Position numbers and translations under genes: made by a program | Part shown: piece by piece, positions 33,835 to 37,441 of the stretch | How the letters are laid out: every line of letters starts with the position of its first letter | Position numbering within the stretch: the first letter of the stretch is position 1 | The notes under the pieces: generated by a model | Told to the model about the DNA's origin: nothing | What the model saw: only the letters and a program-made list of their open reading frames with translations | The model's database searches: none | Source: Cyanosarcina radialis HA8281-LM2 | GTDB taxonomy: Bacteria > Cyanobacteriota > Cyanobacteriia > Cyanobacteriales > CCAP-1448 | Length of the DNA: 64,000 nt | Direction: 5' to 3' | Assembly: GCA_019359615.1 (NCBI GenBank) | Contig: JAHHHA010000007.1 | Span: 124,001-188,000 of the forward strand

Positions 33835-34485
33835 TTACTGGCGACGCTCTTGTAATTGGCGATAAACAGCTTTGAGATCGACTTGATGGTGAGCTAAAGC
33901 TACTAGGGTATGGTAGAACAGATCGGCAACTTCGTTAGCGATCGCCTCCTTGTCGTCATCTTTGCAAGCCATCACCACTTCGGCTGACTCTTCTCCTATT
34001 TTCTTCAAAATTTTGTTATCTCCACCCGCAAACAGTTGGCAAGTGTAAGAACTTGCTGTCGGATTGTCGCGGCGATCGCAGATCGTCTCAAACAACTCGG
34101 ATAATGTATCGGCAGGAGGTGCAGCTTTAATTCCATCTAGTTGATGAAAGCAACTCCGTTCCCCCGTATGACAAGCAATATCTCCTACTTGCTCGACCGT
34201 AACTAGCAGCGCATCGCTATCGCAATCGTAGCGCAGACTTTGCACTTTCTGAACGTGACCGGAAGTTGCTCCCTTATGCCACAACTCGGAGCGAGAACGA
34301 CTCCAAAACCAAGTTTCTCCAGTTGTCATCGTCTTATGGAGGGACTCGCGATTCATCCAAGCCATCATCAACACCGTGCCATCGAGGTAATCTTGGACAA
34401 TGGCTGGAACTAGCCCTCGATCGTCGTAACGGATTTCTTCAACTGGAATCGCTGCACTTAAGGGGATTGATTTGGCACTTGACAT
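33835..34485 (-). CDS. hisIE: Bifunctional phosphoribosyl-AMP cyclohydrolase / phosphoribosyl-ATP pyrophosphatase
   Basis: HisIE catalyses the second and third steps of histidine synthesis. The N-terminal HisI domain (residues 15-120) has [27 protein letters not shown] and the zinc site DCDSDALL with [10 protein letters not shown]. The C-terminal HisE domain (residues 125-216) has the metal-binding [18 protein letters not shown] and NEVADLFYH motif. The 216-residue length is that of the normal fusion. It lies alone; the TnpB element is inserted about 120 bp upstream of its start. Confidence 0.96.
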
Positions 34486-34641
34486 CTGTTACAGAATCTA
34501 TATAAAAGAAACTTGCGAGTGAGCGACTTCGCTCGATGTTAAAGCTGAGCGACGTTGCCTTGAGCTTGTTGAAGAGAGCCGAAGCTTTAACCTCTGTATA
34601 TATCTTACAACGTACTGCAAGATTTGTGCTACCATAAAAAT

Positions 34642-35820
34642 ATGGCACGCTTAGCACTAACTTTAAAACTTCCTTTTTATCGACTCAATCAGGTCAAGGC
34701 GCTTGAATTTGAGCGGTTAACCGCTCTCAACACATCTGTCGCCAACGAACTGTTGTTGATGGAGAAAAAGGAGCGTTCTCAGTTAACTAGTGCTGCCTTT
34801 CACCATATAGAAATTAGTTCTAACTGGATTAACCAGACCATCCGCAATACGAATGCGAGAACTAAAGTTAAGTATTTCCAGCGGATGTGGCTAGAAACCA
34901 ACAACCAAAGTTACGAACTAGCCAAACATGGGGACTTTTACACCGTATCTTTCAACCTGTTAAGAGGGAAGAAAGGGCGAATTCCTCTATCTGTCCATGC
35001 TGCTTCCCATACCGAAATTTTAGATAAAGCCATTGAGAAGAAAGCCAAGCTTGGCAGTATCAAGTTGTGCAAGTCAAAGAAAGGTATCTGGTATGCACTT
35101 ATATCTGTGTCGATGGAAGTTCCCGACGCAGAAGAAGTAAAGGGGTGGATTGGAGTTGACAGAGGACAAAATAATATTGCAGTGGCAGCCCTGCCAAAGT
35201 CCTTTGGGAAATTCTGGAACGGTCGGAAGGTAAAATCTCTGAGAAGACGATTTCAGCAAACCAGGCAAGCATTGCAGCAAGCTAAAAAACTCAAGAAGGT
35301 AAAACAAATTGAGTCTCGCGAGCGTCGAATCATCACGCAAATCAATCACGAGATTTCTAAGCAATTGGTTAGATTCGCTCAAGATTTTCATCTGGGATTG
35401 CGTTTCGAGGAATTGACGGGTTGCCGTCAAACTATGAAACAGCGAAAGAAAACTAAATCTGACGCGGCTAAAAATCGCGATAGTTGGGCGTTTTATCAAC
35501 TTGAGATCTTTACTCGTTACAAAGCGATTCGTGCAGGCGTTCCGGTGCAATCGGTTCCTGCCCCCTACACCAGTAAGTCAGACCATCGCCATGGCGTTAT
35601 CGGCAAACGGGAAAAACATCAATTTACTGGCTTTGATGGCTATCGGTGTCATGCTGACTGGAATGCTGCTCAAAATATCGGACAATGGCTAGGGTTTGCC
35701 TGCCCGCTAGAACTTCAGAAGGTTGTATCTGTAATGGATGCTGCCGTTCTAGGGGATGGGGTCGATGACAGTCCCTTACCTAGTGATGCGTCTAAGACGG
35801 TGGTTTCAACCCCGTCTTAG
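34642..35820 (+). CDS. tnpB: TnpB RNA-guided endonuclease with altered zinc finger
   Basis: TnpB is the nuclease of IS200/IS605 elements; it uses an RNA from the right end of the element to cut DNA and is the ancestor of Cas12. Starting at ATG 34642 the protein has 392 residues. The RuvC residues are present: Asp in GVDRGQNNIAV (residue 173), Glu in LRFEELTG (256 or 257) and Asp in CHADWNAAQNIG (339). The usual CxxC...CxxC zinc finger between them is not: PAPYTSKSDHRHG and FTGFDGYRC keep only one of the four Cys. The frame is intact. Its stop codon lies inside the right-end hairpin. Confidence 0.9.
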   Translation: MARLALTLKLPFYRLNQVKALEFERLTALNTSVANELLLMEKKERSQLTSAAFHHIEISSNWINQTIRNTNARTKVKYFQRMWLETNNQSYELAKHGDFYTVSFNLLRGKKGRIPLSVHAASHTEILDKAIEKKAKLGSIKLCKSKKGIWYALISVSMEVPDAEEVKGWIGVDRGQNNIAVAALPKSFGKFWNGRKVKSLRRRFQQTRQALQQAKKLKKVKQIESRERRIITQINHEISKQLVRFAQDFHLGLRFEELTGCRQTMKQRKKTKSDAAKNRDSWAFYQLEIFTRYKAIRAGVPVQSVPAPYTSKSDHRHGVIGKREKHQFTGFDGYRCHADWNAAQNIGQWLGFACPLELQKVVSVMDAAVLGDGVDDSPLPSDASKTVVSTPS

Positions 35821-35863
35821 ACAACCGCTAGAATCCTCGTCGATTTATCGCGAGGAGTGTCAA
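35789..35863 (+). ncRNA. Putative guide RNA (omega/re-RNA) scaffold end of the TnpB element
   Basis: The region spans the end of tnpB and two hairpins up to TCAA at 35863. In this family a non-coding RNA from the 3' end of tnpB and the right end serves as guide scaffold, with the guide taken from flanking DNA, here starting CTATCGTTAAGATATACCG at 35864. Existence of the RNA is inferred from the family, not shown. Confidence 0.5.
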
Positions 35864-36139
35864 CTATCGTTAAGATATACCGACAGCTACAAAATAGCCA
35901 ATCAAATCGCCCGCTCCTCATAGGAATTTAATTTGCATTTTGGCAGACTTATGGGATAGTCCACTTTAGCTGTCCCAAAGGACAAAAGGATCGAGTGTGA
36001 CCGTGCGGACTTAAGATCGATAAAAGTTACTAAAACCTGCCTGGGCGAGTTTAGTTTGTTTGACTGCGATTTTCATGGGTGCGAGATAGACCTTAACAAA
36101 CCTCGATCGAAAATTGGTAAAAGACTAGGAGATTAATCT
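35864..36139. other. Spacer upstream of hemL
   Basis: About 275 bases. No gene, RNA or known repeat is recognised. It probably holds the hemL promoter. A weak hairpin GGGATAGTC/GCTGTCCC is at about 35952-35976. Confidence 0.4.
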
Positions 36140-37441
36140 TTGATTAGCACCACGAATTTGAACACCACTAAATCAGAAGAGATTTTTGCCGCCGCCCAAA
36201 AGCTGATGCCAGGAGGCGTGAGTTCTCCCGTGCGGGCATTCAAATCAGTTGGGGGACAGCCGATAGTATTCGATCGCGTCCAAGGAGCCTACGTTTGGGA
36301 TGTCGATGGCAATCAATACATCGACTACGTTGGCACTTGGGGACCGGCAATTTGCGGTCATACCCATCCTGAAGTGATCGGGGCGCTGCACGCCGCCCTC
36401 GAAAAAGGCACTAGCTTTGGTGCGCCCTCGGTGCTAGAAAACGTCCTGGCAGAAATGGTGATCGATGCCGTTCCCAGTATCGAAATGGTACGGTTTGTCA
36501 ACTCTGGAACCGAAGCTTGCATGGCAGTTCTGCGGCTGATCCGAGCCTTCACCGGCCGGGAGAAAGTCATCAAGTTTGAGGGCTGCTACCACGGACACGC
36601 CGATATGTTCCTCGTCAAGGCGGGGTCGGGCGTGGCCACGCTGGGGCTTCCCGATTCTCCTGGAGTGCCCAAAGCAGTCACCAGCAGCACCCTAACTGCC
36701 CCCTACAACGATTTAGAAGCCGTCAAAGCCCTATTTGCTGAAAATCCTGACGAAATTGCTGGGGTAATTTTAGAGCCTGTAGTGGGCAATGCTGGTTTTA
36801 TTCCCCCAGATGCCGGATTTTTAGAAGGCTTGCGAGAAATTACCAAAGAATACGGCGCATTGCTGGTATTCGATGAAGTCATGACAGGCTTTCGGATTGC
36901 CTACGGCGGCGCTCAAGAAAAATTTGGTATTACTCCAGATTTGACCACCTTGGGCAAAGTTATCGGCGGCGGCTTGCCTGTAGGGGCATATGGCGGTCGC
37001 AAAGATATCATGTCGATGGTGGCTCCTGCTGGTCCGATGTATCAGGCTGGGACGCTATCTGGCAACCCCTTAGCGATGACGGCTGGAATTAAGACACTAG
37101 AGTTATTGCAAAAACCGGGGACTTACGAGTATCTGGAAAAAATCACTCGTAAGCTAGCCGATGGCTGGCTGAAAATCGCTCAAGAAACCGGGAATGCTGC
37201 TTGCGGCGGTGCGATCTCCGCCATGTTTGGGATGTTCTTTACCGCCGGTCCGGTTCATAATTACGAAGATGCGAAAAAGTCTGACTTAACTAAGTTCAGC
37301 CGCTTCCATCGCGGGATGTTAGAGAGGGGAATTTACCTAGCACCTTCTCAATTTGAGGCTGGGTTTACTTCCCTGGCTCATACCGAAGCCGATATCGATC
37401 GCACTTTAGCCGCCGCACGGGAAATCATGTCGAGTTGGTAG
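36140..37441 (+). CDS. hemL: Glutamate-1-semialdehyde 2,1-aminomutase
   Basis: HemL converts glutamate-1-semialdehyde to 5-aminolevulinate, the precursor of chlorophyll, heme and bilins, with pyridoxal phosphate. The 433-residue protein has [16 protein letters not shown] near residue 24, the [20 protein letters not shown] cofactor region near residue 119, [11 protein letters not shown], and the PLP lysine in [18 protein letters not shown] near residue 273. Translation starts with TTG at 36140, placed 9 bases after AGGAG; no ATG is available near. A strong terminator follows at 37480. Confidence 0.96.

What the first reader, a model, noticed from the sequence alone, without database searches (positions are those of the whole stretch)
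34609..35900. TnpB with intact RuvC residues but without the canonical Cys4 zinc finger
The three catalytic acids are present, the frame is full length, and both element ends with their hairpins and a candidate guide start are visible. Yet the region that normally holds CxxC...CxxC reads YTSKSDHRHG...FTGFDGYRC, with one Cys left. Either zinc binding is replaced by His/Asp ligands or the subdomain folds without zinc. Stand-alone TnpB elements are natural RNA-guided nucleases, so a zinc-free variant would be useful for understanding the fold. I have a vague recollection that related cyanobacterial copies share this feature, which I cannot verify.
Basis: partly seen in the sequence, partly recalled or inferred. 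Interest (0 to 1): 0.55.

Follow-up and report, generated by a model that had tools for sequence, protein, structure and literature searches.

The report
RNA-guided nuclease lacking its zinc finger
This cyanobacterial transposon gene encodes an RNA-guided DNA-cutting enzyme (TnpB) from a conserved lineage that has lost the zinc-binding cysteines usual in such enzymes, although relatives in that lineage still multiply and stay under selection, so the metal site seems dispensable.

Summary
The ORF at 34642-35820 (+) is a full-length TnpB (392 aa; NCBIfam guided_TnpB 129 bits, cut-off 100) with an intact RuvC D-E-D and none of the four zinc-ligand cysteines. This is a lineage trait, not decay: 65 of 65 zinc-less rows (20 in the nearest set, window included; 38 and 7 in two further sets) lack both Cys of the first pair. 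dN/dS is about 0.09-0.11, and the former finger is more constrained than the rest of the protein. One relative's genome holds 30 near-full-length zinc-less copies with one right-end form and 30 different guides. The nearest clade's right-end RNA covaries strongly (102 double-changed cells; shuffles 28 +/- 4). Relatives at about 48-60% keep Cys4 or His-Cys3. A set nested among zinc-less rows has Cys-Cys-Cys-His on the shortened loop, suggesting one loss and a later re-invention. The right end (35863) and guide start (35864) hold. Zinc binding and cleavage are untested inferences. New variant of a known kind.

The parts
34642..35820 (+). tnpB coding sequence, 392 aa, solo (no Y1 transposase beside it)
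   Evidence: a TnpA was found in 0 of 17 held loci of the nearest set
35158..35160 (+). RuvC-I catalytic Asp173 (GVDRGQ)
35407..35409 (+). RuvC-II catalytic Glu256 (LRFEEL)
35656..35658 (+). RuvC-III catalytic Asp339 (HADWNAA)
35578..35652 (+). former zinc-finger segment S313-H337 of the TNB domain: D314, H317 and G330 at the first three Cys positions; loop one residue shorter than in Cys4 relatives
34524..34595 (.). dispersed palindromic repeat (partial copies elsewhere in this genome); lies where relatives have their left-end hairpins
34489..34492 (+). best remaining candidate for the left flank TTAC; weak, no typical left-end hairpin follows
35758..35775 (+). guide-RNA scaffold helix 1 (inside the coding sequence)
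35790..35822 (+). guide-RNA scaffold helix 2 (spans the stop codon)
35834..35856 (+). guide-RNA scaffold helix 3, right-end hairpin
35855..35863 (+). right-end terminus GAGTGTCAA
35864..35883 (+). predicted guide (first 20 nt of the flank)
   Evidence: position inferred from element ends in multi-copy relatives; length of 20 nt assumed

Best explanation
[quoted passage not shown] The four Cys were replaced by a conserved S/T-D-H-R-[NT]-G ... F-x-G-x-D-G-Y-x-C motif with one loop residue deleted. It should work like other TnpBs. The 3' end of the tnpB transcript, with three hairpins ending in GAGTGTCAA, serves as guide scaffold, and the flanking DNA from 35864 is the guide. The protein recognises a YTAC motif and cuts the matching emptied donor site, so that the element is kept after excision. 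Shown: intact catalytic acids, purifying selection including the former zinc finger, covarying scaffold RNA, clade-wide loss of Cys, recent multiplication of a zinc-less relative. Inferred: RNA guidance, cleavage, the YTAC requirement, absence of metal. The window copy has no recognisable left end, so the copy itself may no longer move although protein and scaffold look intact.
For: NCBIfam guided_TnpB 129.1 bits against cut-off 100; Pfam TNB domain 41.7 against 26.3. No Cys at the first two ligand positions in 65 of 65 zinc-less rows (A 20, E 38, C 7; 30 of the E rows come from one genome). Tail one residue shorter (9) in 93 of 93 rows of A+E+C+B (two of them, L100 and L103, are printed as 11 because an earlier Tyr was taken as anchor; one search shows 9), against 10 in 11 of 13 Cys4/His-Cys3 relatives (the other 2 were not parsed and are longer) and in 4 of 4 outgroup rows. 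Median dN/dS 0.087 (14 rows of set A, dS near saturation) and 0.108 (30 copies of G354) against 0.112 for one Cys4 pair. pN/pS of the former finger 0.160 against 0.248 for the rest (A) and 0.052 against 0.129 (G354); lower in 5 of 5 sets, narrowly in set C (0.219 against 0.238). G354: 0 of 32 matches with a stop inside; of the 30 held as loci, 30 end in GGAGTGTCAA, 28 have TTACGAA within 320 nt upstream, and the 30 guides all differ. RNA: 28 pairs, 96.1% of cells paired, 21 pairs with changes on both sides, 0 of 500 shuffles as high. AlphaFold2 with 9 rows: residues 311-350 at pLDDT about 79-86; best solved matches are AsCas12f (Z 26.1), with ISDra2 TnpB at Z 19.0.
Against: No biochemistry. 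The good TNB model rests on an alignment in which 4 of 9 rows keep Cys or His ligands (a fifth, L130, is cut before the region), so its fold may be borrowed; with 4 rows, all zinc-less, residues 311-350 had pLDDT about 26-31. AlphaFold does not model metals. D314 is invariant (58 of 58 in A+E), so a metal role for it is not excluded. In this genome there is one such copy, no transposase beside it and no typical left end.
Confidence: 0.74

Rival explanations
1. The metal site is kept with other ligands: Asp/His in the first knuckle and Asp/Cys in the second bind zinc or another metal.
For: D314 is invariant in 58 of 58 A+E rows, and an Asp (one Asn) and usually a Cys follow in the GxDGYxC stretch. 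Viral-contig relatives L131 and L132 have His-Cys3, and Cas12m2 has a solved HCCC site (PMC10442227, passages), so the ligands can change.
Against: H317 of the window is Asn in 19 of 20 set A rows; H315 is 17 of 20; the Cys is Val or Ala in L018, L029, L078 and L088; set C has S, S, N, C. Asn, Thr, Ser and Gly are poor zinc ligands (general knowledge).
Confidence: 0.12
2. A repurposed or domesticated TnpB: fixed single copy, kept for its guide (for example as a regulator or a local defence) rather than for transposition.
For: Single copy in the genome at high identity, a TnpA found in 0 of 17 held loci of set A, left end not recognisable, conserved operator-like palindrome at the promoter.
Against: Set A relatives have different flanks and guides but conserved ends, as expected of moving elements that use a transposase in trans; the host has 5 Y1 transposase matches, one of them partial. 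The RuvC acids are kept, unlike nuclease-dead TnpB derivatives (recalled).
Confidence: 0.1
3. A decaying copy that lost its Cys by drift.
For: No typical left end in the window.
Against: The whole set shares the replacement motif; dN/dS about 0.1; open frame; intact scaffold RNA.
Confidence: 0.03

Closest known systems
ISDra2 TnpB (Deinococcus radiodurans), cryo-EM 8h1j and 8exa
   Same: Domain order, RuvC D-E-D, right-end RNA that runs into the flank, fold (8h1j: Z 19.0 over 302 residues)
   Different: ISDra2 has a CCCC zinc finger, C331/C334/C351/C354 (PMC10097598, passages); here none, with one loop residue fewer. Motif YTAC instead of TTGAT (the latter recalled)
Cas12f (AsCas12f, OsCas12f, CnCas12f1)
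   Same: Best structural matches and, with a TnpB-labelled entry, among the best sequence matches in solved structures
   Different: Cas12f uses CRISPR RNAs (general knowledge) and binds zinc in the TNB domain (PMC10097598 legend). I did not look for a CRISPR array around the window
Cas12m2 (type V-M)
   Same: TNB zinc ligands can vary (HCCC; PMC10442227, passages)
   Different: Still binds zinc; altered RuvC triad; here the triad is canonical
Cys4 and His-Cys3 relatives at about 48-60% identity (L023, L024, L026, L039, L071, L072; plasmid loci L084-L086; viral-contig loci L127, L129, L131, L132)
   Same: Same family by sequence; the same right-end form in several; promoter palindrome in 4 of 10 tested
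   Different: Keep CCCC or HCCC; loop one residue longer (10 in 11 of 13; 2 longer still)

Membership tests
TnpB, RNA-guided endonuclease (NCBIfam NF040570) | Score above the curated cut-off | tested here: met
   129.1 bits against 100
TnpB, RNA-guided endonuclease (NCBIfam NF040570) | RuvC D-E-D triad | tested here: met
   D173, E256, D339, conserved in relatives
TnpB, RNA-guided endonuclease (NCBIfam NF040570) | Structured right-end RNA overlapping the 3' end of tnpB, guide beyond the end | tested here: met
   Covarying three-helix scaffold in 20 sequences; guide position inferred from multi-copy relatives. Expression not tested
TnpB, RNA-guided endonuclease (NCBIfam NF040570) | RNA-guided DNA cleavage next to a TAM | not testable with these tools
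   Needs biochemistry
TnpB/Fanzor as defined by the motif D-X(125,275)-[TS]-[TS]-X-X-[C4 zinc finger]-X(5,50)-RD (PMC3627910) | C4 zinc finger | tested here: not met
   D, H, G at the first three positions, no fourth Cys. By that definition it is outside; by sequence it groups with Cys4 TnpBs
IS200/IS605 element | Y1 transposase, subterminal hairpins, fixed target motif | tested here: inconclusive
   Relatives: Y1 TnpA within the held locus in 6 of 7 set C, 4 of 15 set B (one partial), 4 of 38 set E, 0 of 17 set A loci; TTAC or CTAC left flank. Window: right end yes, left end not recognised, no TnpA beside it

The most novel reading that the evidence does not exclude
A TnpB lineage lost its zinc finger once, with a one-residue loop deletion and a D-H-R-N / G-x-D-G-Y replacement. 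It stayed an active mobile RNA-guided nuclease, and one branch later re-invented a different zinc site (Cys-Cys-Cys-His) on the shortened loop, so the zinc site of TnpB is evolutionarily interchangeable. The tree with one loss is not rejected (p-AU 0.344), whereas a clade of zinc-less rows without the Cys3-His set is rejected (p about 4e-39) (groups named after a first tree was seen).
Probability: 0.45. Interest if true: 0.66.

Novelty: new variant of a known kind. Interest (0 to 1): 0.55.

Why it matters
The C4 finger has been described as part of a strictly conserved motif of TnpB and Fanzor (PMC3627910, passages), and it is present in the solved ISDra2 TnpB and SpuFz1. A conserved, multiplying zinc-free lineage, with Cys4, His-Cys3 and Cys3-His relatives at 38-60% identity, is a natural experiment on what the zinc does (stability, or target-strand loading). 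It also offers small nucleases that may not need zinc or reduced cysteines. And it warns that searches built on CxxC...CxxC patterns (such as the regular expressions in PMC10711439, passage) would miss such proteins.

Tried and rejected
Left end at 34609: rejected (palindrome). Left-end hairpin at about 34525: first taken by me as the left end (note), then rejected because partial copies of that stretch occur elsewhere in this genome (two at E below 1e-4, two weaker), one of them inside a 415-codon open frame. Empty-site comparison: the hisIE side matched in 40 of 40 relatives, but the match stops near the gene start in most, so the empty site could not be read; I did not align it further. Phage records: no match at E 1e-15. 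Plasmids: 4 records at E 1e-40. Viral contigs: 7 scans gave matches on 5 contigs; on 4 I read the TNB region (2 Cys4, 2 His-Cys3), on the fifth the longer match is cut before it and the short one was not read. Rfam: 0 matches in the window at gathering score. Monophyly: sets A, E and D each needed two changes on the tree, and the root is unsure because outgroup branches are long. First structure model: TNB region unresolved.

Limits of the genome counts: only the best few candidates of each genome were scored, so copy numbers there are lower bounds (G354 shows 4 matches and 32), and the samples overlap. The TnpA check used four usable query proteins (two more came out empty) and loci with mostly 1.5 kb flanks.

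Papers: the TnpB classification paper that I wanted (doi 10.1073/pnas.2308224120) is not held. It may still be in print. PMC10711439 says that 'many' TnpBs hold the finger (passage), so exceptions may be known. A find in the main text of two mutational papers gave no 'zinc' or 'cysteine' (PMC11844463 and PMC13330202).

Full report
What is there. The frame at 34642-35820 lies between hisIE (33835-34485, minus strand) and hemL (36140-37441) (gene names by my reading of the translations). It scores as guided_TnpB and as the TNB domain. Its three RuvC acids are intact. At the place of CxxC...CxxC it reads SDHRHG...TGFDGYRCHAD. Four other TnpB-like genes of the same genome found at E 0.001, 30-38% identical, keep four Cys; a fifth, more distant one turned up later and also has Cys pairs.

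It is a lineage trait. In 291 genomes of the order, 32 hold a relative at E 1e-60 or better. In 388 genomes of the class, 18 do at E 1e-45; the samples overlap. Further order samples gave 6 of 63, 1 of 9 and 2 of 29. The genome-contig scan gave 3 loci, the plasmid search 4 records. I sorted the rows by sequence. A, nearest, 67-78% identical: D-H-R-N then GFDGYRC. E, about 42-52%: D-H-R-T/N then G(A/Q/F)DGY. C, about 38-43%: S-S-V-N then KCTSG. B, about 38-46%: C-S-T-C then CPNGH. D, about 48-60%: four Cys, or His-Cys3. In one search the first-pair positions lack Cys in 20 of 20 A (window included), 38 of 38 E (30 from one genome) and 7 of 7 C rows, and hold Cys in 28 of 28 B rows (many are copies within genomes). 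Eleven of 13 D rows were parsed (C1: 9 Cys, 2 His; C2: 11 Cys).

It is not decay. Among 30 copies of G354 the median dN/dS is 0.108; among 14 A rows 0.087 (dS near saturation, so rough); for one Cys4 pair 0.112 (my own Nei-Gojobori count). The former finger has a lower pN/pS than the rest in 5 of 5 sets, by little in set C. G354 has 32 matches, 0 with a stop inside. Of the 30 held as loci, 30 end in GGAGTGTCAA, 28 have TTACGAA upstream, and the 30 guides are all different; one (L113) has a Y1 transposase beside it. Nine of the 30 carry an 8-residue insertion inside the former finger loop. So a zinc-less TnpB element has multiplied there recently.

The guide scaffold. Aligning the last 110 nt of 20 A elements gives three helices. 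Cells paired 96.1% (shuffled mean 75.0), 21 of 28 pairs with changes on both sides, 102 double-changed cells (28.0 +/- 4.0), 0 of 500 shuffles as high on any measure; sliding the partners by 1-3 columns drops paired cells to 42.5-53.0%. The alignment was not fitted to the structure, but the structure was derived from the alignment. Multi-copy relatives fix the end at GTGTCAA and the left flank at TTAC. In A the left flank is CTAC in 10 and TTAC in 2 of the 12 rows (of 18) that I accept; 5 rows, the window among them, gave none, and one call at -556 I discard.

The window copy. Its right end matches fully (35855-35863). Upstream lies a dispersed palindromic repeat. The copy may be fixed; a transposase in trans exists in principle (5 Y1 matches in the genome, one partial).

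How the loss came about. With the finger columns left out, trees place B inside the zinc-less E/C side (98/98 and 98/99 support for B+C; E rows L079, L029/L088 and others branch below). The tree in which A+E+B+C is one clade, and so a single loss, is 3.95 log units worse and not rejected (p 0.344). A zinc-less clade that excludes B is rejected (p about 4e-39). The 93 rows of A+E+C+B share the shorter tail, 9 residues, against 10 or more in D and outgroup rows (two G354 rows print 11 because an earlier Tyr was taken as the anchor). The simplest reading is one loss with a deletion, then a new Cys3-His site in B. Independent losses, a zinc-less family ancestor with regain in D, or exchange of the segment by recombination remain possible.

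Structure. With 4 rows the TNB region was not resolved (pLDDT about 26-31 at 311-350). With 9 rows it was (about 79-86; short strands at 322-324, 327-329 and 335-337), whole-model pLDDT 74.9. Best solved matches are AsCas12f (Z 26.1, 3.4 A over 333 residues), with ISDra2 TnpB at Z 19.0 over 302. Four of the nine rows keep ligand residues, so this shows that the sequence is compatible with the ordinary TNB place and fold, not that it folds without metal.

What is known. ISDra2 TnpB and the Fanzor SpuFz1 have CCCC fingers (PMC10097598 and PMC10432273, passages). Cas12m2 has HCCC (PMC10442227, passages). PMC3627910 calls the C4 finger part of a strictly conserved motif (passages). PMC10711439 says that many hold it (passages). 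I recall that the Nuc/TNB domains of Cas12a and Cas12b have no zinc; this comes from no call. So a zinc-free TNB is not without precedent in the wider superfamily, but I found no report of it for TnpB in the ten searches listed under Tried and rejected.

Noticed in passing
window 34602-34623; upstream of tnpB in L009, L012-L018, L020, L021, L038, L080, L084, L127, L129, L131: Conserved palindrome ATCYTRC-N7/8-GYARGAT near the tnpB promoter (13 of 18 A, 4 of 10 D, 0 of 25 E/C/B loci), an operator-like site of unknown binder.
   Followed up: partly
L131:641-1816, L132:1501-2679 (viral contigs): Relatives with His-Cys3 in place of Cys4, like the ligand set of Cas12m2.
   Followed up: partly
L101, L104, L106-L109, L112-L114 (G354): Eight extra residues inserted in the former finger loop of 9 of 30 otherwise intact copies; L105, L110, L111, L113 and L114 also differ just after the RuvC-III motif.
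   Followed up: partly
window 34524-34595; L146 and L147: Dispersed palindromic repeat with partial copies in this genome, one inside a 415-codon open frame.
   Followed up: partly
L148:1999-3189 and L145: A further, distant Cys-bearing TnpB of this genome has the same right-end form AGAATC...GAGTGTCAA just after its stop, so this right end is shared by distant TnpBs.
   Followed up: no
L007: Contig filed as Candidatus Gracilibacteria carries a TnpB that falls inside set A, otherwise cyanobacterial; possibly a mis-binned contig.
   Followed up: no
L087 (Chroococcidiopsis thermalis PCC 7203 plasmid pCHRO.01): Named strain with a zinc-less set C TnpB and a divergent tnpA on a plasmid typed as conjugative: a good laboratory source.
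   Followed up: partly
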